Assembly: GCA_034620365.1 (NCBI GenBank)
Contig: JAQGEQ010000192.1
Location: 2,413,001-2,477,000, forward strand
Reading direction: 5' to 3'
Source of the DNA: Pegea sp. RAD2-039
Taxonomy: Eukaryota; Chordata; Thaliacea; Salpida; Salpidae
DNA length: 64,000 nt
Shown here: in pieces, positions 12,578-57,839 of the stretch
Layout: every line of letters starts with the position of its first letter
Position numbering within the stretch: position 1 is the stretch's first letter
Notes under the pieces: model-generated
What the model saw: the letters and a program-made list of their open reading frames with translations, nothing else
What the model was told of the DNA's origin: nothing
The model's database searches: none
Program-made: the position numbers and the translations under genes

Positions 12578-15500
12578 TGCTCATGAAAAAAGATAAGATA
12601 AACAATTTAATTTAAATCAATTTTCTTGACTTAAAATAAAAAGTACATCTTTCAAAAATAAGATAACAACAATTTTAATAATAAATCCTATAAGGTCATT
12701 AATAACTATTAAAACATAGAAAATAATGAAAAATGTCAACTTAATTCAAGTATTATGTGATAGAAAACAAAGGTATTTAAAAAAATCGTAAAAATAAATT
12801 GTAAATTCAAATTGCTGAATAGTTTGTCTAAATCAATCTAAAACGGTTATAAAATAAATTTCAGATTAAGAACACAACTTATCAAAACAAATTCTTGCTT
12901 GTTTGTATAAAATGTTAATAACGCACATGTTAAAGTTATGAATAGTTTGAGGTAATTCCCAGTGCTAAAACTTATTTTAAAGCTGGTTAATTTATTTTTC
13001 CGAAAAAGTTGTTCAAATTCTATTTAATATATTTTGTTTCATACACTCACAGAAAAATCAGAAAGAAAATTAAATATGATTTTTATAATAAAATAGTTAA
13101 TCAATTTTCAGAATAGCAAATTTCAGATCTAAAGTTATATTTAATTACTTTAGTTAGTTGATCTAAGAAGGCTATTTTATTTATTACTTTTAAAAATATT
13201 CATCAAATTGATCTATTTACGTGAAAATAATCAACGCCCCAGGCAATTCTTGTGGTTACTCATTTGGTAGCAAAATAAGGAAATCACCAAGATCATAACT
13301 GCACGTATTTTGAGTATTAATTTTATTTTAATAATTTGTTTGCTTGTAAGTAATATAATTGCTATAATATTCTTCAACACTTTAAATTAAGTTCATAATA
13401 TTAAACACCTTCAGTTTTATAGAAATTAAACCGAATTTAATTTTTTAACAGAAATTAAATGAGCAACTTTGAATAAAATTCAAACAACAAAGTGTAACTA
13501 ATGTCACTAAAGAATTATTTAATTCCAACATTTGGAAAATTGAGCTTTCTCAGACTCCATGATCATGGATCAAAGATAAATAATTTAGTATAGTAGATAT
13601 TTAACAAAATTTGAATGTTACTTTATTTATTGACAGAGTGTGTTAGTTTGATCCAGATTCAGACTCGCCAGGTATTACTATATACGTTAAGTGCTACTGT
13701 TCTAACTTACAGATTTGTTACTCGTAAAGTTTTATTCCATCCAACCTCCTTATAGCTGAAGTTTTTAGAATGTAACCAAACATAAAAAAACGATATGGCA
13801 AAAACAACGTCAATGGCAAAGGAAAAATGTATTTTTAAAATTAAGTTTCAGCTGTGAATGCTTATCCTCAAATAGTATTCGTGATATTTGTCAACCCAAT
13901 TGCAAAGCAAAAAAGTTTTCGAGCTTTTTACAATCGTTGAGAGGTAATGACAATATAAATAATTATTTTTAGAAATCAACTATTCGACCAGTGCATAGAA
14001 GCCATGCTAGATAATTTTTTACGATATCTATATTTATTCTAGCAAATACTTTTATCATTTTAATAGTTCACAAGTTTCCAATTTATCATTCTTTTGACTT
14101 ACTTTAAAGCTTAGATACTTTTTAAGCATTATTGAGCTAATTAGGTCGTTCTTATTTACTACTAGCAACTCATTCTACAAGGAAGTTTATATTTCGATGT
14201 TTTTGAAGGTTTATGTTTAGGAGTGAGAGAAATATATGATTTACTTTCGATGATTTTTTCTCATTATGGTTCTCTGTAAACATAAAAACTTCTATATTTT
14301 ATTATTGTTAATTAATTTTTTTTTCAAGTTGTAACAAAGTTTACTTCTACTTTCTTTTGTATTGCTTTTAACAGCTTATTAGAGATAACACCTTGTATAT
14401 ACAAGTTGAAATTATTGCAATTGACTTTTTTCTAGTTGTAAATTCTATTACAAGCACAGAATTAGTGCAGCTAAATTTAGGGTTTGGCTGATGAGCTTCA
14501 ACTGTTTACAAAAATTATTTGTTTGTTTTAGATAACAACTACAAAAAAATACTTATTACACCACTATTAAATTATCTTACTAAGTTGTTTATATTTTTAC
14601 GCGTTCGGTAAAAGTATTATAATTTTATATTATATCGATATTTAAATAATTGTTCAACTTAACCGTTATGCACAGAGCTATTTTGGCTTATTTCAGTGGA
14701 TAGTGCAATCAAAGCTGATTAGGTTCAAAAGATTGAAATGAAAAGTTTCACTACCTAAATAAAATATTTGTTTCATCAAATTTATTAATAACCAAATGGT
14801 AAATTATTTGTTTACTTTTATATTGCTGACATAATGTTTATTTAATATTATACAAAGTTCAAGCCTAAAAGCCTTGATTTAAAAAACAGCTTCCGCATTC
14901 TTGTACTAAATAGAAAAATGTTAAAACTGGTACAAATTGAAATTTACATATAGTAATTTAAATACCTGAGTTATGATTGGAATGTTTTTTCATAAACATT
15001 TATATTTTTATAGAAATTCTTAAAATTATTTTATTTTGGCATTGTAATATCTCTATGAGTTTCATAAGAATTTATTAAAATATCTAATAATTTTGAATAA
15101 AGCTTGAATGTGCAGTTATAAAAATTGTACTTACTTATTAAGGTAACCTTTTATTTTTATGTTTTATTGCTTATAGTTATTTATTTGCTTGCTTTGGGAT
15201 AAGCTGTATAAATATTGTTCAATCTGTAAATGTTTGTCACTATATTTAATACATTAGTTATTAATATTTTACATTTTTTTGTTTTACCACCAATTACATA
15301 GCTTGTTGTAGTTGTAAATTTACTTTTAATGTTTGTATACAAAGTATTTTTCTTGGCAAATTAACCAGATATTTTTTAGTTCAAGATTTTCTATAGATTT
15401 CATATTTAGCTGATATAATAAAATCTTTTTTATTATTTTTTAAAGTTTTTATGATAATAAAATATAATATCAAAATATTTTTATCTGTTTTTTATGAATG

Positions 15501-15629
15501 CTTCTTTTCAATTATTATTTTAATAAAGTTGTTTTTAGTTAGCTATAAATTACTTTTAAATAAAAATGTCATTAAACAAATAATATCATATTCATATAGC
15601 TATAAGGTGTGGTAAAAAAATTTAGAAAA
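12578..15629. other. intergenic between divergent SLC7 and S1P lyase genes
   Basis: Three kb of AT-rich DNA that should hold the 5' regions of both neighbours. A small GC-richer island at about 13215-13315 is the only compositional exception. I see no supported exon, RNA gene or repeat. Confidence 0.45.
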
Positions 15630-17294
15630 ATGTATGAATGTCTTTGTGACTGTATGGAAGTAATATTTGACTTTATTAATAAGTTTCTACTTATGATAAA
15701 TGACCAATGCACAGATTATGAAGCCTGGCAAATTATTCTGGTTACTATAGTAACATGTGTCCTCATTAACTGGGTATCAGACTTTTATAACTCTAGTGAT
15801 TTGTCTCTAACTGAAAGGATCAAGTTTAACTTTTTTTATTATATAAAAAAGATTCCTATTGTGCAAAGATATATTGAAAAAGAAATGGAAAAGGTTTTAG
15901 TGGATGTTTCTGCTGAGAAGTTGTATAAACTACAAGGTAAAAAATATATAAAAGTCTTACCTAAAGATGGAAAAGATTTAAAACAGATTTCAAATCTGAT
16001 TGATGAATATTTGGACTTGGATAAAGTGGACTGGAAAAGTGGAAATGTTTCTGGGACTGTTTATAATGGTAATGAAGAGTTGACTGAGATTGTTGCTGAA
16101 ACTTATAAGAGATTTGCTTGGTCAAATCCCTTACATCCTGATGTATTTCCTTCAGTTAGAAAAATGGAAGCAGAACTTGTACGAATAACTTGTAATTTGT
16201 TTAATGGTGACCCAGATAACTCATGTGGTTGTGTTTCTTCTGGTGGTACAGAAAGTATTATGTTGGCTTGTAAAACTTATAGACAATGGGCTTATGAAAA
16301 AGGTATCAAAAAACCTGAAATTATTTGTCCAATTAGTGTTCATGCCGCATTTGAAAAAGCTGCAACTTGCTTTTGTATGAAAATTATCTATGTTCCAGTA
16401 GATGCTACAACAAGAATGGTTGATATCAAAGCAATGCGAAGAGCTATTACAAAAAATACTTGTATGTTAGTTGGTTCATCTCCACAGTTTCCTCATGGTG
16501 TTATTGACTCAATTGAAGAAATTGGAAATCTTGGTGTAAAGTATAACATTCCTGTACATGTTGATGCTTGTCTTGGTGGATTTCTTATACCATTTATGGC
16601 TGATGCTGGCTTTAAAATCAGACCATTTGATTTTAGTGTAAAAGGTGTAACTAGTATAAGCGCTGATACTCATAAGTATGGTTATGCCCCAAAAGGAACT
16701 TCAATCTTAATGTATAATTCAAAGAAATGGCTTCATTATCAGTACTTTGTAAATCCTGACTGGCAGGGTGGGATTTATGCAACACCTATGTTTGCTGGTA
16801 GTCGAAGTGGGGCTGTAGTTAGTGCTTGTTGGTCTGCTCTTTTGTATCATGGTTTTGATGGTTATGTGAAACTTACCAAGAAAATTATTACAACTACAAA
16901 GTACATTGATTCACAGCTACGGAATGTGGAAGGTATCTTTGTCTTTGGAAAACCTGATGTTTCTGTTGTTGCTATTGGAAGTGATGAGTTTGACATTTAT
17001 AGATTATCTTCAGCACTTGTTGAATTAGGTTGGAATTTAAATAGTCTTCAGTTTCCTTCTAGTATTCATATTTGTGTTACACTTCCTCATACTGAAGATG
17101 GTGTTGCTGACCGGTTTGTCAATGATGTTGCTAATAGTGTGAAAGAAATACTAAAAGTACCTCAAGCAAAGAACGAAGGTGCTGGAGCCATGTACGGAAT
17201 GGCTGCATCAATTCCAGACCGTTCTATTGTTGGTGATTTAACTAAAGCTTATATAGATGCTTTTTATGATACTAATGATAAAAGTAATCAATAA
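15630..17294 (+). CDS. SGPL1: sphingosine-1-phosphate lyase (intron-less)
   Basis: PLP-dependent lyase of the ER membrane. It irreversibly cleaves sphingosine 1-phosphate to phosphoethanolamine and a fatty aldehyde, the exit step of sphingolipid breakdown. The 554-residue product (human about 568) has a luminal N terminus and one membrane segment near residues 33-50 (WQIILVTIVTCVLINW). The group II decarboxylase-like fold follows: SSGGTESIMLACKTYR, the PQFPHGVID block, HVDACLGGF, and the PLP-lysine motif SADTHKYGYAPKG with Lys at residue 349. The late motif DWQGGIYATP is also intact. An in-frame GTG at 15609 extends the frame, but the ATG at 15630 is the likely start and sits 4 nt after AATTTAG. 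Unlike its multi-exon neighbours it has no intron in the coding region, suggesting intron loss or a retrocopy. All recognised motifs are intact. Confidence 0.95.
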   Translation: MYECLCDCMEVIFDFINKFLLMINDQCTDYEAWQIILVTIVTCVLINWVSDFYNSSDLSLTERIKFNFFYYIKKIPIVQRYIEKEMEKVLVDVSAEKLYKLQGKKYIKVLPKDGKDLKQISNLIDEYLDLDKVDWKSGNVSGTVYNGNEELTEIVAETYKRFAWSNPLHPDVFPSVRKMEAELVRITCNLFNGDPDNSCGCVSSGGTESIMLACKTYRQWAYEKGIKKPEIICPISVHAAFEKAATCFCMKIIYVPVDATTRMVDIKAMRRAITKNTCMLVGSSPQFPHGVIDSIEEIGNLGVKYNIPVHVDACLGGFLIPFMADAGFKIRPFDFSVKGVTSISADTHKYGYAPKGTSILMYNSKKWLHYQYFVNPDWQGGIYATPMFAGSRSGAVVSACWSALLYHGFDGYVKLTKKIITTTKYIDSQLRNVEGIFVFGKPDVSVVAIGSDEFDIYRLSSALVELGWNLNSLQFPSSIHICVTLPHTEDGVADRFVNDVANSVKEILKVPQAKNEGAGAMYGMAASIPDRSIVGDLTKAYIDAFYDTNDKSNQ

Positions 17295-39263: not shown

Positions 39264-42200
39264 TTAACTCTGATTGAGATGCTGAAGAAGTTGCTCAGCG
39301 TTATCGCTTTCACCTACTCCTGTTGTAGTTGTTGTCAAAATCTGCAGACACAAAATGATTAGATGAGAGATAGAAGAGAAGATCTTTGTGAAAATGAAGA
39401 GGAAATAACCTGATCTGACGAGCTGACTTCTTCTCCGCTTGTCATATAAACCTGTCCATCATCACCTTGTACAAACTGAGTTCCAGGATGCCCAATCACA
39501 AATCCCTCATCAGTTTGTATCAAAGTATACCCTTCAGGAAGCTCAAAGTATTGTCCATCACCGATGGAAACCAGTTGTTTGCCTTCCTCAGCGGTTACTA
39601 TGGAACCATCATCCATCATCACTTGTTGCTGTGCACCAGCAGCGCTAACCGCGACTGCTTCTTCGACACCAGTAGTAGCGATTGTCTGTGTGGTTGGAAC
39701 CACAGAGGTCATCACATCTACAAGAGAACAGTTAGAGATGGTGTGATCAGTTAATAGAAACTTCTTACTGGTTGTGGACCCTTCTACTGATATCTGACCA
39801 AGACTCTGGTCCACATCGCTAGTTGAAACATGTGTGTTGGGCACTGGACCATTATCCACCTTCATGTGGTCAAAAGGTGATTGGTGACGACTTGCCAGCT
39901 GAAGTCTGGCTTGCTCACGAAGAGCCTGTGATTCTGGTCTCGAGGACATGCTAGTGGACTGCATTGAGGTGGTCGCAGAGGTGGTCGAGGAGGTTGCCAT
40001 GTAGTTGGTCTTGCGTTGCTGGTACACACTGCGAGGTTTATAGGACATATTTCGAGCTGAAGAGCTAGAAGAAAAGTATGAGAAGCTGTAGACACAAAGA
40101 CAGGGACAAGTTACCCGTAAGTTGCCCGGGACTGCTGTGACCACCTCTTGGGCGAGTTGAATGAAGGCATATTCATCCCATCTAAGTCAGACATTCGAGG
40201 ACTTGGTCTTCGGCGAGGTTGTTCTATAAAAGAGTCGATGAAAGATGAGGATGAGAATTAGGAAGAAGACGGACTGTAATCATAGAGCATTGGAAGATCA
40301 AGTCGATGTAGAGGAGGTTCCATCTTGCAATTGAGACGGAAAGAATTAGCCGCCATCATCTGAGCAGTTGGATGTGATTGGATGTTGCCGATGTGCGCAT
40401 CGATGCTACTTAAATTGATATTGAGTGCGTCGGCCGCCTTCGATCGAAGAGTAAGTAAATGAGAGGAAGAGGATCATGTGATCACCTGTTTGTTGTAGAC
40501 GGGCATGAGGATGACTTTGTCAAGACGTCGATCACCGCCCACTTTGTTCGCGCGTCGAAGCAGCGTGGTGTAGCGGGCGGATTCTTTTTGAACTGACATG
40601 TGTAGAGCTTCAAGTTGTTTGTACAAAGCAGCATAACTGACTTTCTCCTTTGACATCTGACCGCTCTGCGTTCGAACAAGAGCTTGATGAGATCTGTTAG
40701 GATTAAATCTCAATCACTGACTTTATACAAGAAGAAATCTCCGATGGAAATGGAATTAAGAGCTTGTGGGATCGCCACACTCATAATTTCTTCGATTGAA
40801 CACTGCTGTAGAAGCTTGCGTAATCGATACTTGTTGTCGACGTCACCATCTTCTTCAATCTACGTCATCAACGCGTTACTACTAGCAACTGATTAAGAAA
40901 GGAAACTCACGAAATCGCTGATTGCTGAAGGTTGATCGTCAGGTTTGGCAGATAACTTTTTCGATTCAAGAAGATCTAATTTGCGAGCAAGAATATCGGA
41001 AGGATTCTCGCCGCTCATTGGCTTGTTGTTATCATTTGATTCAACTTCTGAAGAATCAGCAACAGCAGAATCATCAGCGTCAGCTATTTTCGAGTCTTCC
41101 GTCTCATCTTTTGGAGTCTCGACTTTTTCTTCATCTTTTTTATCTTTAGAATCATCTTCAGTTTTACTCTCTGCATCCAAGGAAGAATCTTTCTCGTTTG
41201 ATTCTTCTTTTTCGACTTCTTCGTTCGACTTCTTTTCTTCTTCATCTTTTTTCTCATCTTCACCAGATTTTTCTTCCGATTTTTTGGAGGTGCCGAAATA
41301 CTGAGCAACTAAATCCAACAGATTTTCAGCACCCGCATCAGCTGTATCTTCCTTCTCAGACTTCTTCCCGTCTCCCTCTTCACTGCTCTTCTTCTCCTCC
41401 TCTTTCCTTGGAGATAGCAGCTTCTTCTTGATCATTACATCTTCAACTACTCTTTGATCAGCTAGTGACAGGAAGACTCTAGGGATGATCGAAGTATGAT
41501 CAACAGCCTCCGGTTTCTTCTCCACTTTCTGCTTCTTCTCAACATTCTCTTCTTCTGAGACTCCTTTTCTTTTTTGACCTCTGGGTGAAGGTACAGATGG
41601 AATCAGAAAATCTTCATCATGAGAAGAGTAACCGGACTTGCGCTTCGTCAATCGAGCTATGTCTAAACTGAATCTACAAAACACAAATAATTAGATGAAG
41701 ACACGATAGTAGTCGATGGCAACGAACCTAGATGGCTTCCGACGGCGTCCTGAACGCGATTTCTGCTCGGAAAGAACACTCGCGTACAGCTCTGCTTCTT
41801 CTCTTTCGCGTCGCTCTCTTCTTTCAAGCTCCACGATTCTCAACTGATCTTCGAAAGCTGGTTTAGAAGCCACCTTCTTCTTTGATTCGCTGTTTTCGCT
41901 TTTAGCTTCTTCCTCTTGAACTGGAGCTGCCTTTTCCTGATCTTCCAATTTCTCAGTTTCTTCTGCAACTTCTTTAACCGGATTAGGATCTTCAACTGGA
42001 TCAGGATCAACTTCCTGAAAATTAAGGATAAGATTTTGTAAGAATCAAGTTTAAAGCAAAGTTGTCTTCACTATTTTTTTACCATTTTTTCATCTGAGTT
42101 CTGATCTTCATCTGCTTCTTCCTCTTCTTCATTCACTTCATTTATTTTTTCAGATTCTTCTTTTTCAGAGTCTTCTTTAGTGATAACAGAGAGAGAATAT

Positions 42201-44492
42201 TCTGGATTTAATTCCATTTTTTCCAAACATTCGATGGTAACTTGTGAAATACGAATTTTCAGCTGCATACAAACTGATAAGTTCTAAAGAATCACAACAC
42301 ACATGGCAACAAACTAACCTTTTTGGTTGCTGTCGGTTTATTCAGTTTTACAAGGACATCATTGAGTCGAACTTGTGATGTAATTGAAGAAATTCTTGAT
42401 TTATTACTTGCAAGTAAAGCTAAGTTGGAATCGGGAAGCGTCCTTGGTCGTCCAGGACGACGTCTTTTGTTACTATTATAAGGATGATAACGAGCAAACC
42501 TGTTAAAGTAACAAACTCTACTTTCATCTAAATCAAGTTCAATTTCATTTACTTAGTATCGTCACGTGATCGCGCCGTTGCTCCATAATCAGATGAGTAG
42601 TCATCATCAAAATTGTAAACTGAATCATCTAGGTTCTCTGATTTCCTTTTATTTCTTGATTTTCCCAGTGTGTTGAATAAATTTTTAGGTGGTTTTGTAA
42701 AACTTTTTCCACTAGGTATATGTCTAAACACCACCTGGAAAACGAAGGTTAATGTGAGTGAGAAAAAATTGATCCAAATAAATAAACACTACATCATCAT
42801 TTATTCATCAATCTTTTTTATACTACAACGAGTATTTTATAAACAAACTTTAATAGCTTCATTTTGTTGAAATAACACGATTGTTATTTTGTTTAATAAA
42901 ATTACTTTCAAACTACAAACGTTTTTACAGTTTGTAGTAAAATATACAAATTAATTTACTTTGATATTTGGATTTGCTTGTAAAGCTTGTAACTGAGCTG
43001 GAGTAATCTGAGATTGATGTATTTGTACTAATTTAGTACCATCATTTGCTACTCTGACATTTTGAGATGAAAAAGAAAGACCAGGAACACCAAGACTGAA
43101 GGATCCCTAAAAAAGTTTTTATATATTACTTTAAAAATTTATAAAAGAAAGAAAATTTATTTTAAAATATTTACAAATATTTTTTAAATGTGTGAATATA
43201 TTATAATGAATAGTGAATATATTAGTTAGATATTACAAATATTAATAAATGTTTAAAGTTTTTGAATAAAAACCCATTTATAATATTGATTTGTGGGAAA
43301 CATTAAAAAACAAATATTAAGTGAGAAAGGTCACCTTTTTAGGTTTCAATGAAAGTGAATCATCAGTTTCACTTCCATATCTAGTATCACTCACTTCACA
43401 GCTAGTTATGTTGGCAGTCACTCTAGTATCGTTCTCATCGCAAACTGCAGTCACTGAAGTTTCAGTGTTTAGATTTTCAGCATTACTAGTACTATCACAA
43501 TTGGTGTAATTAATTACATCTTTTGTTGAGCTAATCAAAGGTATTTGGTTCGATTCTATAGCAACCATATCATTTTCATAAGTGCCATCTTCTGTAAGTT
43601 CTTTTTTGCTATCATCTATTAACATGTTTTCATCTACTTCTACTGTATCAGTAGCAATAGTACCTACATTCACCAAATTCTTATCATCAGTTGCCAAGAA
43701 TGCATCATCTACTATAGAGTTTTCCATATCCTCAGTTGTATTAACCAGAGAAAAATTACCACTTTCTAATGATTGATCAACTTTTTTCTTATCACCATCA
43801 TCAGACTCCGTAGTTATACTTTGAACAACTGGTAATGTGATTCCTTCATCAGCCACTGTAACTTTTTCTACTTCTTGTTGTGGTAGATCAACTTCTTTAG
43901 TTGTTGCACATAGAATAACATCTTCTTTCAATGATTCATTATCATTATTAAGAATGGACTTTTCAGGAATGTCTGGTACTATGCTACATTCTTCTACAAA
44001 GCCAAAATTAGAAGGCAGTTCTTCTTTACTAACAACTACAGTTTCAATGTCTGAAGGATTTTCTACATATAATGAAGATACATCATCAACTATAGTTTCA
44101 TTTGAAGGCAGTTCAGCTTCATCTATTTTTTCAACTATTTCTGAAATCTCTTTTGGCTCAGTTAAAACATAGGTTTCCTCTTTGATTTCTTGAGAAATAT
44201 TAGAGTCTGACACATCCTTTTCTACATTCTTCTGTTCATCAGTTACAATAACTTTTTGTAGATCTTCAGTTTCTTCTTTTACTATTACTGTAGGAACAAT
44301 TTCAATTGCTTCATTAGAAGTTTCCATAAGAGTTACTTCTTCAACTTGATCATTAATGGTATCAGATAATTTAGTTGAATTAATGGAAGATGTATCTACA
44401 GATGTAGCTTGATTATCATCACTTATTGATGTTGATTGTTCAGTTTTTGGCATTTGATCAATTTCATTATCACAAGCATCTTGTATATCCAT
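39264..44492 (-). CDS. AT-hook nuclear protein A (unrecognised family, paralogue of the gene at 48.0-57.8 kb)
   Basis: Fourteen exons give 1386 residues: 44492-43335, 43106-42960, 42734-42553, 42499-42319, 42262-42083, 42014-41728, 41673-40911, 40859-40722, 40656-40486, 40437-40275, 40223-40115, 40064-39769, 39717-39410, 39341-39264. Exon 1 alone encodes 386 acidic Ser/Thr/Glu/Val-rich residues. Then come [20 protein letters not shown], an AT-hook (KRRRPGRPRTL) that binds the minor groove of AT-rich DNA, a long Glu/Lys-rich low-complexity middle, the helical module LRKLLQQCSIEEIMSVAIP, a Ser/Thr/Gln-rich region and a C-terminal GQYFELPEGYTLIQTDEG module. A nuclear, chromatin-linked role is inferred from the AT-hook only. 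The intron with donor GTCCGT (40274-40224) is the weakest junction. The 39768-39718 intron is inferred from its consensus borders and could be read through in frame. I do not recognise a named orthologue. Confidence 0.82.
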
Positions 44493-45534
44493 TGTGCTAA
44501 ATTCAAACAGATAAATTAACAATTAACACCAAGTAATTTTTGAACAGTTTTAGAAAATAATTTCTTTTGCCCTTATAAAAATATGAATAACATTCTTAAT
44601 TTGGCTTATTTAATAGCTAATCAACAATGTTCTATCATGGCCTAACATTTAAATTACAAAAGCTAAAAATCATAAAAACATATATTATCTATGCAAAAAA
44701 GATCAGCATTGCTTTAAATTTATGATTTAAAAACAAATAAAATAAATTCAAACTGAAAATAAATAACTTAAAATGTGGAAAATAAATAATAAAATCATTA
44801 ATTAGCACTTATCACAGATATATAAAATATAATGTGTAGGTATTAAATTCATAAACTAAAACTTAATAATATATAATATATTTTTCAAAATAAATTTAAT
44901 AAAATTATTTAATATATTAACACTTCATTATTTATATAATAAATAAATTAAATGTGACACTTGCTTTTACGATTAATAAAAAAAACATTTCATTTTTAAA
45001 TAAATAAAATTATTATATTGTTAACTTAACTTAGATATTCACATATATCTATCAACTAGATAACTTTTAAATCATAAATATCTAACCATAAGCTTAAAAT
45101 AAATAAGTCAATAACATTTTATTAAGAAAATGATCAATATCCATACACAAGCTTCCTTGTCTAATTTTAATATATTAAAAATAAATTAAAATACATAACT
45201 TCAAAATATCAATTTAAATAATTTCGTTATAAACAATTATAAATTAAAAAAAATCTTAACCTTACCTAACCTTATATAAAAATAAACTTTTTAACATTCA
45301 TAGTGATGGTATATTTAAATGATTATATTATAATTTAAACTAAGAAAACAAGACTAAACTAAATATGCTGCATAAAGCTAGGATGACAAAATTTTGATCT
45401 TACACACATTAATTTAAAAATATAAAGTAAAACTGGTTTTAAATAAAAATGTATTCATATTATTTAATCATAGAAAATGAAAACAAAAAGATTTTACTCA
45501 TTTTACAAACAGATTACACCCCGTAAAAACCTGG

Positions 45535-45557
45535 TGACAGAATGGCGCGCTCTGTCA
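45535..45557. other. perfect 7-bp stem-loop in a GC-richer patch
   Basis: TGACAGA (45535-45541) and TCTGTCA (45551-45557) flank a 9-nt loop with GCGCGC. It stands out in a very AT-rich intergenic region between two divergent genes. It may be a protein-binding palindrome or part of a promoter; no function can be read from it. Confidence 0.35.
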
Positions 45558-47317
45558 ATTACAAGTAATGGGCGAAACAGGAATATTCTAATGTTTTTGA
45601 ATGAGATGCCTATATTAATTAAAATCGAAAAAAAAAGTTAAATAAAATATCGAAATCTTTCAAAAACGAACTATACTTTAAAACTTTAGGTTATATTTCA
45701 TAGATGAAATGCAAAAGGCTGAAGATAATATTAGGCCAAATGTTAATTTTTATTATACGGGTGCTTTGTAGATTGTCCCCGCTCCCTTTTTGATATATTT
45801 GAAAAATATTGAAAAAACTCTTTATAGTATTTTCTTCGATAAATCAATATGACATAAAATTTATTTTTGTTAGAAATAATAAAAAACATACTCTGCATTT
45901 AATTTATAATAAGTAAAGATTTTTTCAAAAAGTATCATATACATGTTGGTTATCTGGTGACAATCTATGACGCTACCGTATTTTTAGTTGAGTTTCTATG
46001 ATTTACCGCTCATTCTGTGATAAATAACTTGTAAAATCCCCAATAAGATTAAATTTAGAGTTGTTTGTAAATATAATTATTCAAATAGTTTTTTGATGTA
46101 GAGTTCTTAAATTAAAATTTCTAACTAATTAAAAAAATTTACTGCACGATTATTTTAGTTTTAAACAATACATGTCACAAATGTTGAATGATTTATCTAT
46201 AAAGATCGTTGTGATTTTAGCCATACACTCTTTTATGTCAAACTTTCTTATTTTAATGCCTTAAAATCATTTAGACTCATTAAATTTTTGTACTTTGTAG
46301 GATTGGTTTTATTATTTTAGTTAGAATATGATAAAATTAATTATCAATTATTGTAGTCAGCTGATATTTTATTTTTTTCATTACTTAGAGGTAAGTTTAT
46401 GTTTTAGTCCATGTAAATGCTTATTTGCTCATATCTTAGATATAATGATTTCATTTTATCAAATATAATAAAGTAAGATTTTTTTAATTTATCATATTTA
46501 GTATAAATGAATTGATAAAATATATTATACTATAGTATTAGCTGTAATAAATGAAATATAATTTATTTGCTTTTTAAATCATCTTTAATTGATCATTTTA
46601 ATTGACTTAAAGCATCCTGTTTCTTTCAAATTGTTAATAAGCTACTCAATACTTATTGTATTATCACTTTTCAATAAGCTATGTAGAATAGATTTTTATT
46701 ATGAGCTATTTATAAAATTATATTTTATATTCTCACTTAAAGATAAAATTGCTCAAAGTACCTATTTGGTTAAAATTATATTTAAATAATGCATTTATTT
46801 ATCATTTGTTTAGTCCTGAGATATATATAAAGTAATCAAAAGGGTAAAGTAATTTTTTGTTTTAAAATTCATCGTAATACTTTCAAACATTTATTATAAT
46901 ACTCTGAAGGCTGTCAAAGCAATCTTTTGCTGTGAAAAGGTTTTTTTGAAATTTATGAAACTTAAATATAATGATTATAAAATAAATAAGATATATAAGA
47001 AGTAAATAAATGATATTTAAATATAACTTTTATATATAATGTTTGTAAGTTTTAAGAACTAAAATTAGAATTTTTCAGAGTATTTTATAAATTAATATAA
47101 AATTTAATTTTTTACACTTATTGTTAAATAAGTCACAAATAAATTTTTATGTAGCAATTATATACTTATAAATCATAAATTCTCTTATATTTGTTTTTTA
47201 AAAATTTTGACTACTAACTTTTAATAATATGGTTTAAAAAGAAATAAAGAAAAAATAAAGCATTTTTTTTAATAAGTGATTTGGTTATGCAGATCAGTTT
47301 ATATAAATTGATATGAC

Positions 47318-47460
47318 TTTAAGAGCTATATAATACCATGTGTTATATCTTTTACTTTCTATATTTTTGGCTAAATAGATGTTATTTATGAGAATGTGTG
47401 TTAGTGAGAGGTGCTCTTTTGAAGTACCCTCCTTCGCATTTATTGAAATAAATAAATATG
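47318..47460 (+). repeat. LINE 3' tail, copy 3
   Basis: Aligns with the tails at 8598-8735 and 34645-34780: TACCATGTGTTATATCTTTT, CTAAATAGATGTTATTTATG, then the GTGAGAGGTGCTC stretch and CCTCCTTCGCATTTATTG. It ends in the short tandem AAATAAATAAAT expected of LINEs with simple-repeat tails. No coding part. Confidence 0.72.
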
Positions 47461-47999
47461 TGTTTAAAATATATTATTCTGAGAATTATTGTTCAATAAT
47501 TTGTTAGCTTTATTTATTACACTCATAAATTTCTTAAAGTTAATAATCTAATTTATAAAATTGGAAATTTTTTTAAGACTAAATTATTTCTAAAGTAAGT
47601 CATTTTTATAAAATGTCATATAATAATTTATAGTATATGGCAATTTTATTATAAGTTATTGTTTTGTTAGTTTATCAAATATATTTTATATATTTTTCAC
47701 TTATCTTTATGATTAGTTAACAATTTTTTATTAAAGTATTTAATAACTTAGTTTTATAAGTTAGCTCATTAAATATAAACTTTTAAGATGAAAGATATTT
47801 TTAAATATTGGAAAATTATCCCATATAAATTCATGAAACTTTTAGAATTTTATTTTCATGTTAAAGTAATTGAGTTTTATTACCATAATCAATGAATAAT
47901 ATTATTGACATATTTAATAATTGCTATTTACTTTATTAGCTTTTCCATCAGCTAAAAATATCATATTTTTTAGTCGAAATTTTGTTTTATTAATTTAAA

Positions 48000-50900
48000 A
48001 TGGCAGAAGATTCAACTAATCAAATGATGTTGGATCCTAATGTGTTAATTACATCAACAGATCAAGGTAAGTCATTTAGTTTCTTAGATTTAAAAGTGAT
48101 TCGTTACTTTTAATAGGAGTGACTCCAATAGTTACAACTTCAAATGAAGATCAATCTGATATTGTGTCTCAAGCTTTTACAAGTGTTGAGCAAGAAGATC
48201 CATCAGTACAATATGTGACAATGACTCCTGAAGAGGCAGCGGCAGCTGGTGTAATGGAAGAAGATCAGGTTTAGAATTGTTGTTGGACTTTAGTGATAAT
48301 TTCTATTTTAACTTACTCTTATCTAAGATTTTTATTAAGAGCTTCTATAAATTTCTTCTTTACTAAATTTCTTGTATTTTGCAAAATTGAATATTTTTAT
48401 CAATAAAACTTTTAAAATTTTTAAGGAAATCTCCTTTTTTTATTATTTTATTCATTAAATTTATTCAGCAAGCAAGCTAATAATTATAAATATATCGAAT
48501 TCACAGAATAACTCATCTCTTCTTCTTCTTTTTTTCTAAGTTGTTTTATTTACTATTTTAATAATTTATTGAAACGTTTTCCAACTGAATTATTTCTCAA
48601 ATCTCAATATTTAGGGTTCATTTGACCAGGTTATTACCACATCTTTACAATTTGACCCTGCAAACCCAAACGTCTTGTATACTGCCGATGGAACACTTAT
48701 AAATCGATCTGATCTGAGTATGGAAGAACAAGCTCTTGTACAAGCGGCGTTGCAGCAACATTTAGCTGAGCAAGAAGCTGAACAAGAACTTGCTGTTATT
48801 GATCAGGTTTGAATTTAAACAGTTTTTAATCAGCTACAGGCATTTTCACTTGACCTTTAAATGGTGTCTAATTATGTGGTTTTGTAGCTAGTCAATTTTG
48901 ATATAAATATATTATTAAAATATTATTTTTATCATAATCTAATCTAAAAATTACTTAATTTTTTAATTTTTTTTTTCTAAACTGAATTTAAGATCTTATG
49001 TTTCTTTATCAAATAAATATTAATTTATTATATTTAAATTGATGTGAAAATTTTGGTAAATCTAAAAGCAAGTTTGAATGAAGTAAAATCGATATATTTG
49101 TAACATTACAGAGTAATACAGCAGATAAGCAATCTATTGGAATTGAAGGTTCTTCCTCTAATATGATCAACTCCGTACAAACATCCGATATAGGTTTATC
49201 TGATGATTTATCAAAACAATCATCTGTAGAAAATGAGATGTTAACAACCTCTAACATGACTGGAAGTAGGTTTACTACTTCACCAAATTGCCAAGCTTTT
49301 AATCGCTGACTATATTCTAGTAATGACTTCTAACCCAGTTGTAAGCAACGTCAACCTTGCTTCGCCTGATACAAATGCTTCTCAAATAGTTCAAACACTT
49401 GCGAATAACGTTCGACGTCAACAGGAATATGCTAAAGCACAAAGTTTACTTGTTAGTATGTTGTAGTTGATGAAAAAATAAACTAATTTATACTGATTTG
49501 TTTATAGAACCAGGCTCGTTCTACTGAAAAACCAGTACTACCAGCAGGCTACCGGTAATCATTTCAAACTTAACTACATATCAAATTACAATTAGTGTTA
49601 ACTAAATGTTATTACTCTGCTAACTATTAGACTTTTTAATGTCAATGAATATATTTTTTTAGTATTTTTACATCTTACTTTGTCTATTTACTTCAGTTTT
49701 ATTTATTTGAATTTTGTTTAAAATTAACTTCGAAGTTATTTATACAAATGATACATAAACAATTTCACTAGTCAGTATTTTCAAGTGGCTTCTTGTATAT
49801 TCTAGTTTGTAACATACAATTGTTGTATTTCTGATTCAGTGAAATTGGCTTTTTTTAAACTGAATTTATTTTACATCAAATCATTTACAGTTATGAAGAA
49901 AAGATTGTAATACGCCAAGGTCAACCTCATGTCATGAAAATGCCAGTTAAAAGCAAACCTACCCCTAAAAAAGTAAGTTACAAACAAATCATCTGGTTAT
50001 TTGTCTATTAAATCACAACATTTCCATGAAAACTTCGAATCTAGCTCACTAAATATAAAAGTAAACTTCAAAAGTTGTTAATTATCGAAATATCAGTTGA
50101 TGTTGGTCTAGATATTGTTGGGTTGATTGAAGTACCTCTACATCTACTCACTTCAGTTTGAAATTGTTTGTTTTATAGGCACCTGAATTACCAGCAGCGC
50201 TAGCGAGCTTAATGCCAAAAGTTGATATAGGTAAAGATGGAAACCAAGTGATTAGGATCCACCAATCACAAATCACTCCCGAACAGTTAAAGTCCCTTCA
50301 AGTGAGTTGATTTATCCCAAGTCTGATTAACTCATCAAATCTTTACAGGAAAATCCAAACGTCCGTCTCGTGTTCCGACCTCCTAGCTCCTCCAGAAGAG
50401 GAGGATCACGACCTCAACCTACAACTCCTTACTCAGGTAGAAGAAGAGGACGTCCACGAAAGAATCCCTACCAAGTAGCAAGATCTTCACCAGAACCTCC
50501 ACCATTGAAATCCTTTGAAGAAAGTCCTCCCACTACCACTAGGTGACGCAGTTGCAATATAAGTATCGCGTTTGTGACGTCATTCTTCTAGATACGGTCG
50601 CCACACTAAGTTGCCCTATTACACGAAGGATTATTTATCAACTGAGAACGGTGATCTTACGGATGACTTCACAGAGAGAAGCACCGAGACATACACCCAA
50701 CCATACAACTATGTTTCAACTAGAGGTAGAAGAGGAAGACCGCGAGGTAATTAGCATAATACGCTCGTCGTCACGTGATTGAGTTTCTATTGATCAGGAA
50801 GCGGAAATCGAACGGCTGACAAACCTTATCGTCGAACTGGGACTTACTCATCACGTATGGAGATGATCAGGGAACAACAATTGAACAACGATGATGAATT

Positions 50901-53900
50901 AGAAGCTAATCAGCGTTTATCAATCGTGGTTAGTCTTTGCTCTCTAATTTGTAGATGTGGTTGATGTTGGTGATACTTACAGCCTCCAAAACCGACCCTG
51001 TCGTCGGTGGAGCAAGCAATCTCGACAAGAAGACGGAATCGATTAAAAGAACTTATGGAAAGTTGTTCGAAAGATGAGATTATGGAAGTTACTCTTCCTC
51101 ATCTTGCTCGCGTTTTCTCGCTCTATGAGTTTCTTACTATGAAGGTTTGTCTTTTTTTAATATTCCGCTAGAAGGTGCTAGTGAGCAACGGCGAAACTGT
51201 TTTAAATATTTGTCATAAAAACGTTTTATGGCTGAATATGTGTCTACTGCTTTTGTTTGATATCTACATTTTTAAGATTTTCATTTAAATAATCACAACA
51301 AGAAATTATTAAACAAACTTTCAAGCTTGCTTCTTAAGATTTAAAAAATTATTTCAAAAGTTTAAATTTAAAATCTAAAAAAACATTTCATTTTGAAATT
51401 AATTTTTGAAATATTTTTCAAGCTACAAACATTCTTAAGATATCACGGCATTTAACATCAACAGAAGGTTTTTGTAAAATTACTTCTCAGCACAAAACTG
51501 CTGAATGAATTTCCGGATAATACTAACATTCTTCAAATTAATGTTTTAGGTTGAAAAAAATAAACTTAGTCGAGTTTATTTTGCTGACATTTACAAAGAA
51601 TATGAATCAATTCATAAATACGTTACTAATTTGACTGGTACATACAAAGATCTTCTAAGTGATCCCACACAAGCATCCTATTTCGAAATAAAAAAAGATG
51701 AAAATAAATCCGATGTAGATCAAAATGATGAAAGTAATCTCGACTCAGAAGAGAAGAAAATTGAATCTGTTCAGGAAAAGAAACTAAATGAAGCAATCAC
51801 AGTGAAAAGTAAAAAGGTAAAAAAGCATTTTGTTTGAACTTTCGTCAAGAAAATGACAAATAATTGGATTTTATTTATTTGATTGCAAAGATATTTTATT
51901 TGCAAACTCATCACAATTACTTTGCTGCAATCTTACTAGCGAGAACTTTCTTTCAAAACCACCTTCAAAATACATCTTTCTATTTCAGCTTCTTAATTCT
52001 TTGGGTTTGAAAGCTGAAAGTTTCAAGGATGTAATGTTAGATCTAACAGTGAAGAAAACGACGCCAGACCAAGAAAATAACAAAACAGCCAACGACAAGT
52101 GCAGAACTGTGAGTCTTTGCTTCTTTATACGCTTCCTAAGACTCAAATTCATAATAGAATCTGTTTCTAGTCATCTTTAGTTACTCGAATCAGTAATATA
52201 GTAAGATAATAGAGGCAAGCAAATATATATCATTTGTTGAAAGTTTTGTATTCTTTCAATTTCCTCATCTTTAATTACTTCCATCAACTCAAATTCTTTT
52301 TTGTTAATTATTTTTTCATCATCACAGCTTTGATTGTAGATCTGACTTTGTTTAATGATAAATATTTCAGCATCTAGTGATTATTTTAATAGTTTGTTAA
52401 AAAGCTATCTACACAGATAACTCGTCATAAAAACCAAATGCTTGGGTGGTGAAATGATATCAAAATTTTAATGAAATATTTCTCATAAGTCGAATAACTT
52501 CTAATTTTTATTTTTTCACTTATCACGAGTTAATCAATAATTTTAAAATTTTTTTAACTTTAATTTCTATAAAAACAATTTTTTAATTGAAATTTTATTC
52601 TTTAAATTCAACTTGAAATAATCGCCGGACAGCTAACAACATCAAATATCTTTTATTTTTTATTTAAAAACTGAAATACTTTTTCTACTTTCAATCTTCT
52701 TCCAATTTTTTACGCCCTGTATTTAAAAAAAATTTAAGACATAAAAATGTTCAATATCAAATATGCTTTGTTACGAAACAGAATTCTTCAAATACTTCCA
52801 CAGTAATCGAACCTCCATAAGCTCAACTGTTTGTTAAATTAAGACTTTTTGTATCAACTGATCTTTTCAAGCAACTGATGTAAGCATCTTCTGATTAGTA
52901 AGAAGTTGAAAATGTCCACAAACATGTCAATACATTTAGATGTCTAGTTCAAATTTAAAAAAAAAGTTAAATAACAAGGCAATTGGCCTGCAGCTATCTA
53001 CCAAAGGCTTCATCGATATTTTATGGAAAGAAAGTGAATAATAGAAGCTTTGTATTTCACTAAACTCACTTAAAGTTCGGATTCTTTGTGTAGTTTAGTG
53101 GCGAGCTCTTTTGTTTATCCTCTTCTAATTGAAAATTCAGTTTTCAAGTTCAAAATCTATCTTGTGACCTATTTGTCTGTCTTCTTGTTTTTATCATAGA
53201 GATTTAGGGTTCGTGTTGTGGTTTTGAATTAGATCTTGTACAAGATTTTTTATCAGAATTTCATTTTCTATGTAATTAAATGTTGATAGGTATTTCAACT
53301 TTGTAATATCTGTCAGAAGACATTTAAGGTGGAGTTTTTACTCAATAAGGTGCTCATTCGCTCGCTGTATACTAAAAATAAGTTCTTTTTTATTCCGCTT
53401 TTCCATTATGACGTCATTAACATCAATCTAATTTCCTCCATCAAATCGAAGACCTTTTAGTGCGAAATGTTCTCTTTTATTTGCTCTTCAACAAAGACAT
53501 TTTTATCATTCATTCAACCATTTTTGTAAAAAGTTAGAAAGAAGTCTAATTGAAAAACAATGACGTCAGCTTAGATGTGAAGATCATTTGCTGCAAGATT
53601 ATTTACATCTAGTTATCAACTGAAATCGAATTTCAGTGAAGAAGAGAAGAAGGTTTGACGTCAAAGATTTTACAAATCAAATATTTAAAATAAATAAAAA
53701 CTTGTGGAAAAGTAGTAAAAGAAAAAGCAGAAAAAAGCGATCATGTCCATGCTTGCCGTGGTTTTCCACTACTGGTCCACATCTATCCACATTACTTGCT
53801 GTCCACTTGTCCATCAAAACTCGTACTCAGACACAAACACTTTAACAGTCACTGTCCGGTTGTCCCTTTTCTTGCCCTTTCTGTTGTAAGTGGTCACGTC

Positions 53901-56900
53901 CACCTTGACCTGGTGTTCACTTGGTCCTTTCAAACTTCGCTGCAACATCAGAAAAGCCGAGGGTACTTGGGGCGAGACATGGGCCAGTCCAAACACTGTC
54001 TGGTCGCCTTCAACCATCTGGAAGCTATATCGTTGTCTCCGGCGTCTTGTTTTCAATCGAATTTGGAATATTCGTCGAGGAACAACCAACATAGATGTGA
54101 TATCGATGTAGTGGTGTGAAACGCTCGATGGTTTCTCTCGACACTTCTCGTACATCGTGACGTCATCACGAAGCGCTTTACAGCGACGTCGGCAAGTGTT
54201 TGTAGTAAATTGACGTCGTCCAAATTCATCAGTCCGTGTTAATTTGCGGTAGAAGTCACGTGATGGACACTGGACTCTATTAATACAATGGAAACCACCT
54301 CTGGTGTTAATACACATCTCATTAGGTCCACAAACGTGCCCCAGACCACCTTCAATGTCCTCACGGTCACATTCGTTGATGTCCACACATGTAAACTCAC
54401 TTCTTGTGTAACTAAACAAATTGATAAATTTATCAATGCCACAAACTGTCCCACACTACTTACCCTAATGGACAGGTGCATTGAAATGAACCAGGGACAT
54501 CTACACACTTCCATTGACACCTGCTTCCTCCCGAGTGAACACAATCACGGTTATCTTTACAATTTCCTGAAATAAAAACTCACAATCATCTTTATTCTTA
54601 TTTGCTTTCACTTACCATTATATAAGCTGAAGCCTAGATGACATCTACATTCATAACTTCCATGTGTATTGACACATTCTGAATTAGGCGGACATGAATC
54701 CAATTCACACTCATTCAGGTCTTTACAATATCTTCCTGTCATCTCATCAGCAACGAAACCTTCTGTACACACACATCTGTATGATCCTATTGTATTTTTA
54801 CAAGTTTCTCCATATGCTGCAGTAAAAAAATATCTTTGATAAAATTGACCTTTCAAATACTGAAGAGTGTTTTGATAACAGAAATTGTCAGATTGTTACA
54901 CTAAAAAGAATTCCTCTGAAATTTTTACAACAAATATTTTATCTTTTGGTTAGACGATTTTCTAGATTATGTATCTTCATGAGGAATTTTGACGTTGCAA
55001 AGAATTTGTTTTTAGTATTTTTTATACTTTTTAATTTAACAGTTTTTATTAATTTTCTTTTTTATTCTTACATTCATTTATTTCTAACTTTTTAGAGGTT
55101 TATTTAGATAAGTTAATAATAAAAATAGAATTTTGTGAAATATTTCAACTCGTAAAATCTTCTTTCAATATTTGAAGTTAATGAATTCCAAACACAATTG
55201 CTATCTACTTTTCCACAAATATTTGTTTGTACTTAAACAAAATGGTTTATTTATAAACTAATTTATTATAAAATGTTGTTTGATTTGCTAAATAAAATAA
55301 TTGGAAGAAATTTTTAAAGATAACATTATATTGTCGTTAAAAATATTTCCGTTGGTCGTTTTGTAGTAATTTTGATTTATTATATTTGAAATATTTCCAA
55401 CTTAAATTTTCTTGTTGTTTCTAATTCATATTTGTCAATCAAACTTTCCTTCCACGTTTGATTTACATATAGCTAACAAGTACTTTTCATATATTAAGAT
55501 ATCAAATCTATATTTTAAGATTAAATGATCCAATCATATTCCTAAAGTTTTTATAAAGTTGTTTGGAACAGAACACAAAGAAGAAAACTTGCTGATAAAT
55601 GATTTGTAATCCTCTGTCAGCTTTCATTCACAAAATTCAAACTTATCCAAATGAAATTGGGATAGTAGATACTATAGAAGCAGCACTTGCTAGAAGGCTA
55701 GCTGGTATCAGTAGTCACTACTAACCTGTGCACATTCCTAAACTGCATTCGTCCGTATCATTACATGATGTTCCATCATCATTAAAATTAGGTTCAAAAC
55801 CTCTTTTACACATGCATTTGTAGCTGCCTCTTGTATTGATGCAATACTGATTACTGTTACAAGGATGAGAGATACATTCGTTGATATCTCGACAAAATCT
55901 GCCGATCTGAAAGAAACTGAATGAAATTGAAGCTATTTACTAGTAATAATTAAACCTTTTTCATTCCTTTAGGACAAACACATGTGTATGAACCTATTGT
56001 ATTGAAACAGATCTCGCCACCACAATAACCTTGTTTACATTCATCAATATCTACACATTCACCTAGAAACTCACAAATATAGTTTCATAATCATTCACTA
56101 CATCAATGACTTACCACTAGAAGTATCTAACTGATATCCTCGTTGACATAAACATGTATAACTGCCCATCAAATTACGACACGATTGGTCAGTTTTACAT
56201 GGCATGTCTAGACACTCGTTAATGTCTTCACATCCCTCTTTTTTGTCGTATCTACTCAACATAAAAAGTCCTCATGTCACTGGTTGCACTTCACTGCACA
56301 CGTCACCTACTTATATCCTTCACTACAAAACTTATCCATTAAATTTTCACTTTTTTCAACTTTAGTAGTATTTGCTTGAGTTAACCAGCTGCCCACCAGG
56401 CAAACCAGCCACCATCTGCAAAGCATTTTGTACTTTTTTTTTTCTTAGCAACTAAACAGATATCTGCAAGACATTAAAGTTAGAAAAACTTCTTAAAAAA
56501 ACGGCTACCTTCAACGACTTCTACTAAATTACATCTTCTGAAATTTCTCATCTTTTAAACTCTTATAAAAACTTTCTTTTTTTCCGTTAACCGCATCATA
56601 CTTTCTGCTTTACAATTGATTCTATTAAACAACCCCACTTCAAATTGAAATACTAAATTTATCTCACAACCCCTGACTACTGCCTTCAACTAGCAATTTC
56701 TTTTGTTACAAAGCTTATGAGACTTATTCTGTGCGTGAATGTTTCTTTTATAGCTTTTTTACCGCTTGCCTTTTTTACTTTATTCAAACCACTAGTGATG
56801 CTACATTCAATTCAACAACGAGCTTACTAGTTAGTTGATTAAACTCAAAACTCATTTCTTATCTGTTTTTAAAGTTTTTTTTTTATTTTTCGAACTTGTA

Positions 56901-57839
56901 CAGTTTAATAATTTGACAAATACACAGAAGTTAGTTTCTACCGCTCAAGTAAATGTTGCTTAAATTTTTCTAAATCCAGATTTTTCTTGTTTTAGAATCG
57001 AAATACAATTGAAAGCATCAAGGAAGTAACTGATGGAGGTGATGCCTCGGCGATCATCAACAATATCCCGCAAGTATCAATTGGAGATCAAGGTAATCTT
57101 TCAACTCTATCTGAATAAGATTATATTCTTTGTTCAAAGTAGAAACTTCACTTATCAACGATGTAAAAGCTGAACATATAGAGACCAGTGAAGCAACCTC
57201 TGCTGTAGTCACTGATCAGGTTTGTTCCTCATCATTAAATCTTTTCATTCTCAACTCTTCTTCATCTGCAGTCATCTCTTCTTGTTTCCAACCCTCTCAC
57301 AGCGCAAGGAACCACAGCAGTCACTGCTACTACTGATGGCTTATTCACAGTGGACACTGTCCAAACAATTTCAACTTCAGAACAGACATCTACAAGCGAA
57401 CAAGTTGATGCCAACGAGTAAGTTCTTCTTCATCAATCAATTCGTTAGTTAAAAGACATATTTGCAGAGCAACAACAAATGTAGAAGAAACTACAATTGA
57501 AGCATCTGAAACGGGTGCCACAACCATCGTACCTGCGAGTACTAGCGGTCCTCAAATCATTCAAATAGGAACAGGCGAAGATAGACAGTTTATAGAAGTA
57601 CCAGAAGGTTACAGTTTAATACAAACTCCAAATGGACTGGTGATGTCACAGGTAACCACTCATCTAAATCCTCATCTTCTTCATCTATCTTCTTTTAGGT
57701 TGGAACTACAATCACACAAGGTGAAGACGGAGTCATCTATGTCACTAACGAAGATGGGACCTCTACTCCGTTGGATTCACAAAAAAGTTTCCCTCTAGAG
57801 ACTGTAGAGTCGTTGCTATCTCTTGATAATCAACAGTGA
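48000..57839 (+). CDS. AT-hook nuclear protein B (unrecognised family, paralogue of protein A)
   Basis: Nineteen exons sum to 874 residues: 48000-48066, 48117-48268, 48615-48806, 49112-49265, 49321-49451, 49508-49554, 49891-49972, 50179-50301, 50349-50542, 50592-50746, 50798-50928, 50983-51144, 51550-51816, 51989-52108, 56996-57092, 57140-57219, 57272-57417, 57468-57651, 57699-57839. Features in order: a short acidic N terminus, [20 protein letters not shown], two AT-hooks ([10 protein letters not shown] and RGRRGRPRG), the helical module [19 protein letters not shown], an acidic Lys/Glu stretch, and the C-terminal [19 protein letters not shown] module. The splice after the module's last Lys is at the same place and phase as in protein A. 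Intron 14 (4.9 kb) contains a whole opposite-strand gene. Function is unknown; AT-rich DNA binding in the nucleus is inferred from the hooks. Confidence 0.85.
53814..56426 (-). CDS. secreted fibulin-like cbEGF protein, nested in intron 14 of AT-hook gene B
   Basis: Seven exons (56426-56311, 56251-56115, 56062-55956, 55906-55726, 54816-54616, 54566-54464, 54411-53814) give 480 residues. A signal peptide ([18 protein letters not shown]) is followed by about seven EGF-like units. Most have the calcium-binding start D-(I/L/V)-(N/D)-E-C and the GSYxCxC core; one (CKDNRDC) lacks the consensus. The last exon carries a fibulin-type C-terminal domain, with [20 protein letters not shown] and an end [10 protein letters not shown], as in fibulins and the tail of hemicentin. 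Such proteins build elastic and basement-membrane matrix. At this length it is a short fibulin, not hemicentin, which has many Ig domains. The gene lies wholly within, and antisense to, its host. Several TGACGTCA sites lie in and just past its 3' end. Confidence 0.93.

What the first reader, a model, noticed from the sequence alone, without database searches (positions are those of the whole stretch)
39264..57839. Head-to-head paralogous AT-hook genes of an unrecognised family
Two large multi-exon genes diverge from a 3.5 kb spacer. They share at least four modules in the same order: (Q/R)[19 protein letters not shown], AT-hook(s), L(R/K)xLxxxCSxxEIMxVxxP, and (E)(L/V)PEGYxLIQTxxG with a downstream QGxDGxxY. 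One splice site (after FLYK / LTMK) is at the same position and phase. This looks like an inverted local duplication of a nuclear protein family that I cannot tie to any named one.
Basis: partly seen in the sequence, partly recalled or inferred. Interest (0 to 1): 0.8.

Follow-up and report, generated by a model that had tools for sequence, protein, structure and literature searches.

The report
Two back-to-back tunicate ZNF839-family genes
Two neighbouring genes of a tunicate, pointing away from each other, are duplicated relatives of the vertebrate protein ZNF839, so the family is already catalogued although its function is barely studied.

Summary
Two multi-exon genes diverge from a 3,507-bp spacer: A (-, 14 exons, 44492-39264, 1389 aa) and B (+, 19 exons, 48000-57839, 874 aa). 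They share three collinear blocks (59.3, 56.2, 50.8 bits; best of 500 shuffles 33.9) plus AT-hook patterns. The main interpretation fails: the family is known. B matches Pfam DUF4764 (PF15961) at 5.8e-23 and A at 1.4e-10, both over the curated cut-off; this domain covers a bird ZNF839. B has uncharacterised orthologues in Ciona, Clavelina, Phallusia and Styela, A in Ciona and Clavelina. No C2H2 finger was found in A, B or any retrieved protein but the bird one. Best reading: AT-hook transcription co-regulators. This leans on one study of mouse Zfp839 as a Runx2 co-activator and was not tested. Ordinary, with mild interest as an ancient, unequally diverged pair.

The parts
39264..44492 (-). Gene A, 14 coding exons, 1389 aa, divergent DUF4764-family paralogue
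   Evidence: Spliced model; exons match the intron-free relative P0014 at 77-96% identity and only here; Pfam DUF4764 40.9 bits, cut-off 25
48000..57839 (+). Gene B, 19 coding exons, 874 aa, tunicate relative of ZNF839
   Evidence: Spliced model; Pfam DUF4764 81.9 bits, cut-off 25, residues 469-774 on profile 318-622 of 799; relatives; own-genome matches of P0004 at E<0.01 all at this locus
44493..47999 (.). Spacer between the two start codons (3,507 bp, 17-25% GC), possible shared promoter region
   Evidence: Gene models; composition; no Rfam match in the window
42966..43025 (-). Gene A module 1 ([20 protein letters not shown]), in exon 2
   Evidence: Inside the 56.2-bit block with B; alignment
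50254..50360 (+). Gene B module 1 ([20 protein letters not shown]), exons 8-9, split by intron 50302-50348
42442..42468 (-). Gene A AT-hook pattern (KRRRPGRPR)
   Evidence: pattern scan of the protein; not reported by Pfam
50439..50465 (+). Gene B AT-hook pattern 1 (RRRGRPRKN)
   Evidence: not reported by Pfam
50722..50745 (+). Gene B AT-hook pattern 2 (RGRRGRPR)
   Evidence: not reported by Pfam
40486..40859 (-). Gene A exons 8-9, helical core module (LRKLLQQCSIEEIM...LEALHMSV); shared phase-0 splice after FLYK (exon 8 ends at 40722)
   Evidence: Pfam DUF4764 stretch 937-1040
50983..51816 (+). Gene B exons 12-13, helical core module ([14 protein letters not shown]...YESIHKYV); shared phase-0 splice after LTMK (exon 12 ends at 51144)
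   Evidence: Pfam DUF4764 best stretch from residue 469; helices in the low-confidence model of the Clavelina relative
39410..39717 (-). Gene A exon 13, C-terminal module (ELPEGYTLIQTDEG...QGDDGQVY)
   Evidence: 59.3-bit block with B
57468..57839 (+). Gene B exons 18-19, C-terminal module ([14 protein letters not shown]...QGEDGVIY)
   Evidence: row of short strands in low-confidence models of relatives
53814..56426 (-). Separate fibulin-like EGF gene nested in gene B intron 14 (52109-56995), opposite strand; not part of the pair, exons not assembled
   Evidence: Pfam Fibulin_C 9.5e-14 and EGF_CA in its open frames; frames

Best explanation
The two genes are an old, inverted tandem duplicate in the DUF4764 family, relatives of vertebrate ZNF839, in a tunicate. 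B keeps the more conserved form; A is a longer, more acidic, fast-diverged copy. Shown: family membership, paralogy, splicing by comparison with relatives, and that no other strong match lies in the genome. Inferred: both act as chromatin-associated transcription co-regulators without a zinc finger. The AT-hooks would hold AT-rich DNA, and the helical DUF4764 core and the C-terminal module would contact transcription factors, as mouse Zfp839 is reported to do with Runx2. Membership alone I hold at about 0.95; the mechanism at about 0.5.
For: Pfam DUF4764: B 81.9 bits, A 40.9 bits, cut-off 25. Bird ZNF839 (P0013) against the Clavelina B protein: 34% over 158 aa, 3e-21, and the C-terminal module aligns in the same order (E 0.003); against the A relative P0014, 28% over 87 aa, 5e-9. 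A and B share modules and two splice sites. Group A is one clade at 100/100 holding the window, P0014, Clavelina and Ciona rows. Clavelina A (LOC143446593) and B (LOC143446594) are each on a contig of 26,535,022 bp, which fits chromosome 2, 26.54 Mb, in the genome note PMC10884593 (passage). P0014 (1385 aa in a 4,695-bp contig) and P0001 (564 aa in 2,250 bp) are uninterrupted frames on contigs too short for the introns seen here, so they read as spliced. Mouse Zfp839 binds Runx2 and raises its reporter activity (PMC8590051, passages).
Against: In the tree the five A rows branch beside four Styela-like B rows at 98/100, on a branch of 2.74 changes per column, and in 0% of 200 bootstrap trees were the B rows one side of a branch. 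I read this as long-branch attraction, which I did not test. Both Ciona A proteins, P0016 and P0017, gave no DUF4764 match up to E 1. Pfam's AT_hook model was not reported for A or B. No test of DNA binding, location or expression was made. The Runx2 work is one study of a mouse protein described as a zinc-finger protein.
Confidence: 0.8

Rival explanations
1. A and B are an older duplicate, from before the tunicate-vertebrate split, and vertebrates lost the A copy.
For: A is far from B (branch 2.74), and the bird protein matches the B relative better than the A relative.
Against: A and B share HQSQITPxQL in near-identical form, which is not recognisable in the one bird sequence. They lie side by side and share two introns. 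Only one vertebrate row was available, so the root cannot be placed.
Confidence: 0.25
2. The genes are unrelated and the shared motifs are low-complexity coincidences or shuffled domains.
For: Outside the three blocks BLAST finds nothing better than E 0.59 between them; both are rich in acidic residues (19% and 14%).
Against: All three collinear blocks score above each of 500 shuffles that keep local composition; two shared phase-0 introns; both match the same Pfam family.
Confidence: 0.02
3. Gene B is really two genes, cut by the nested fibulin-like gene in its 4,887-bp intron 14.
For: The intron is far longer than the others of B (47-405 bp) and holds another gene on the opposite strand.
Against: P0001, 89% identical, reads without a break from the end of module 1 to the C-terminus in a 2,250-bp contig. 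The Ciona intestinalis, Clavelina, Phallusia and Styela B proteins carry module 1, core and PEGY in one chain.
Confidence: 0.03

Closest known systems
ZNF839 / Zfp839 (vertebrate; Pfam DUF4764, PF15961), here the bird protein P0013
   Same: DUF4764 helical core (FRRKARLKELIQQC...YREFEDLH), two GRP AT-hook cores, KTRSGR motif, AESLGI motif, and a C-terminal FIQTSDGLILS module, the core, KTRSGR and C-terminal parts in the same order
   Different: P0013 has one C2H2 pattern (Pfam zf-C2H2 15.4 bits, under its cut-off of 25.2); none was found in A, B or the 19 other retrieved proteins. Module 1 is not recognisable in P0013.
Ciona LOC100178511, Clavelina LOC143446594, Phallusia, Styela and Ciona savignyi proteins (gene B orthologues)
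   Same: 45-49% identity to B over 60-100% of the searched region, residues 270-874
   Different: Sequence divergence; listed as uncharacterised or by domain only
Ciona LOC100180874 and Clavelina LOC143446593 (gene A orthologues)
   Same: 46-50% identity over 96-100% of the searched C-terminal region (run with the first A model)
   Different: One Ciona record bears the name 'microtubule-associated protein futsch', which the domain evidence does not support

Membership tests
Pfam DUF4764 (PF15961) | Match over the curated score of 25 bits, gene B | tested here: met
   81.9 bits, E 5.8e-23; best stretch covers profile 318-622 of 799, so a partial, divergent match
Pfam DUF4764 (PF15961) | Match over the curated score of 25 bits, gene A | tested here: met
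   40.9 bits, E 1.4e-10 with the corrected model; best stretch covers profile 307-406 of 799. The first, mis-spliced model gave no match; its Ciona orthologues give none either, Clavelina's gives 31.2 bits
Relative of ZNF839 | Direct similarity of the core and C-terminal modules in the same order | tested here: met
   Bird ZNF839 vs Clavelina B: 3e-21 and 0.003, collinear
ZNF839 as a zinc-finger protein | One C2H2 zinc finger | tested here: not met
   0 C2H2 patterns in A and B; 0 in 19 of the 20 retrieved proteins, 1 in the bird P0013; several of the 19 are fragments. I therefore file A and B under DUF4764, not as zinc-finger proteins
AT-hook proteins | AT-hook motif | tested here: inconclusive
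   GRP cores in basic surroundings by pattern, A one, B two; Pfam AT_hook not reported for either
Runx2 co-activator (reported function of Zfp839) | Binds a Runt factor and raises its activity | not testable with these tools
   Reported for mouse Zfp839 only (PMC8590051, passages)
Local inverted duplication | Adjacent opposed copies with no other copies in the genome | tested here: met
   Every own-genome match at E<0.01 is at this locus; weaker ones on C8, C103 and C108 have E 0.61-1.13

The most novel reading that the evidence does not exclude
An ancient head-to-head ZNF839-type pair kept together across tunicates because both genes share one regulatory spacer. The A copy has become a tunicate-specific acidic AT-hook factor, and the absence of a zinc finger shows that the family's core task does not need one.
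Probability: 0.25. Interest if true: 0.4.

Novelty: new member of a known kind. Interest (0 to 1): 0.2.

Why it matters
It ties an apparently unnamed pair to a named, poorly studied family. It suggests that the conserved parts of ZNF839 are the DUF4764 helical core and the C-terminal module rather than the zinc finger, and that tunicates carry two copies that could be compared in Ciona. Otherwise it is an ordinary annotation result.

Tried and rejected
First gene A model: donor after FFL with a 35-nt intron. Rejected once P0014 read FLYK-SGQM; corrected. With the wrong model Pfam gave no DUF4764 match. The homologue search for A was run with that first model, residues 940-1396.

Reaching other phyla failed. 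Three protein searches gave 13, 4 and 14 proteins (11 of the last 14 already known), of which one is from a named vertebrate. Each scored only about 8,000 candidates, and the third did not even return the bird protein that was in its query, so absence from these lists (for example of a Styela A copy) means little.

Literature: searches for ZNF839 or DUF4764 (56 papers, 20 listed), ZNF839 with 'interact' (52, 30 listed), Zfp839 (11, all listed) and the Ciona LOC numbers, DUF4764 or 'zinc finger protein 839' (15, all listed; LOC numbers in none): among the listed titles I saw none on the tunicate genes. A DUF4764 gene is named in mosquito expression data (PMC11034644, one passage). PMC11957562 puts ZNF839 ChIP signal on mitochondrial DNA in its least reliable set (passages). 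A paper search on head-to-head genes and operons in Ciona gave 2 papers, neither of use by title. Rfam: no match in the window.

Full report
What is there. The window lies in a 105.7-Mb, 387-contig genome. Gene A runs on the minus strand from 44492 to 39264 in 14 coding exons (1389 aa), and gene B on the plus strand from 48000 to 57839 in 19 (874 aa). All introns in the two models are GT..AG. The start codons are 3,507 bp apart across a spacer of 17-25% GC.

Is the likeness real? BLASTP gives three collinear blocks, 59.3, 56.2 and 50.8 bits. In 500 copies of B shuffled inside 20-residue blocks the best score was 33.9 bits. The FLYK/LTMK splice site is phase 0 in both genes, and a second phase-0 site (NKQ|AADALN and SKK|LLNSLG) is also shared. 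Near relatives read through without introns: P0014 (93% over the searched C-terminal part of A; 77-96% exon by exon; 1385 aa in a 4,695-bp contig) and P0001 (89% to B, 564 aa in 2,250 bp). P0001 also joins the two halves of B across the 4,887-bp intron that holds the nested gene.

What family is it? Gene B matches Pfam DUF4764 (PF15961) with 81.9 bits and gene A with 40.9 bits; the cut-off is 25. Both cover only part of the 799-position profile. A bird ZNF839 matches the same model at 4.1e-256. Compared directly, the bird protein and the Clavelina B protein align in the KTRSGR motif (E 0.089), the core (34% over 158 residues, 3e-21) and the C-terminal module (E 0.003), in that order in both. 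The A relative P0014 aligns in the core at 5e-9. So the family has a name, even though ZNF839 is little studied and the tunicate proteins are listed as uncharacterised. The two Ciona A proteins gave no DUF4764 match up to E 1, while the Clavelina A protein did (31.2 bits), which shows how far A has moved.

Copy number and age. Searches of the whole genome with the Pfam model and with the proteins P0004 and P0014 found matches at E<0.01 only at this locus. In a tree of 19 rows on 198 columns the A proteins of the window, P0014, Clavelina and Ciona form one clade (100/100), so the duplication is older than the split of those lineages. The same tree places A beside four Styela-like B rows (98/100) on a very long branch, and B was one side of a branch in 0% of 200 bootstrap trees. 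I read this as an artefact of the long branch, but did not test it; it is a result against a clean two-clade picture. In Clavelina the two genes have consecutive LOC numbers and contigs of the same length, 26,535,022 bp, in keeping with chromosome 2 at 26.54 Mb (PMC10884593, passage). That they are neighbours there is inferred from the numbers; their orientation was not seen. With one vertebrate row the tree cannot be rooted against the vertebrate split.

How it may work. A and B have AT-hook patterns (one and two) and no C2H2 pattern. Pfam's AT_hook model did not report the hooks. Of the 20 retrieved proteins only the bird one has a C2H2 pattern, itself under Pfam's cut-off, and several of the others are fragments. 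Low-confidence models of relatives show a helical core and short C-terminal strands with no convincing structural match for the one that was searched. Mouse Zfp839 binds Runx2, did not change reporters alone, and raised Runx2 activity (PMC8590051, passages). I therefore infer a chromatin-bound co-regulator whose AT-hooks hold DNA and whose conserved modules bind partners. None of this was tested for the tunicate proteins.

Verdict. The claim of an unrecognised family is wrong. Interest is low, with a modest open point in the long conservation of the pair and the absence of a zinc finger.

Noticed in passing
53814-56426 (-): A fibulin-like gene with calcium-binding EGF domains and a Fibulin_C domain sits inside intron 14 of gene B on the opposite strand.
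   Followed up: partly
15606-17294 (+): A 562-residue open frame without a break matches the pyridoxal-dependent decarboxylase domain and resembles sphingosine-1-phosphate lyase (name recalled); an intronless gene among intron-rich ones may be a retrocopy.
   Followed up: no
10451-12580 (-): Two open frames match the amino acid permease domain AA_permease_2, probably exons of one transporter gene.
   Followed up: no
P0016 (Ciona, gene A orthologue): A public record names this protein 'microtubule-associated protein futsch', perhaps an automatic name drawn from its acidic low-complexity stretch.
   Followed up: partly
G000:C8:826552-826716: A weak match (E 0.61, 38% identity) to the C-terminal PEGY module elsewhere in the genome.
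   Followed up: no
P0019: A fragment ending in the PEGY module carries the precomputed label PF27926 rather than PF15961; what that entry describes was not looked up.
   Followed up: no
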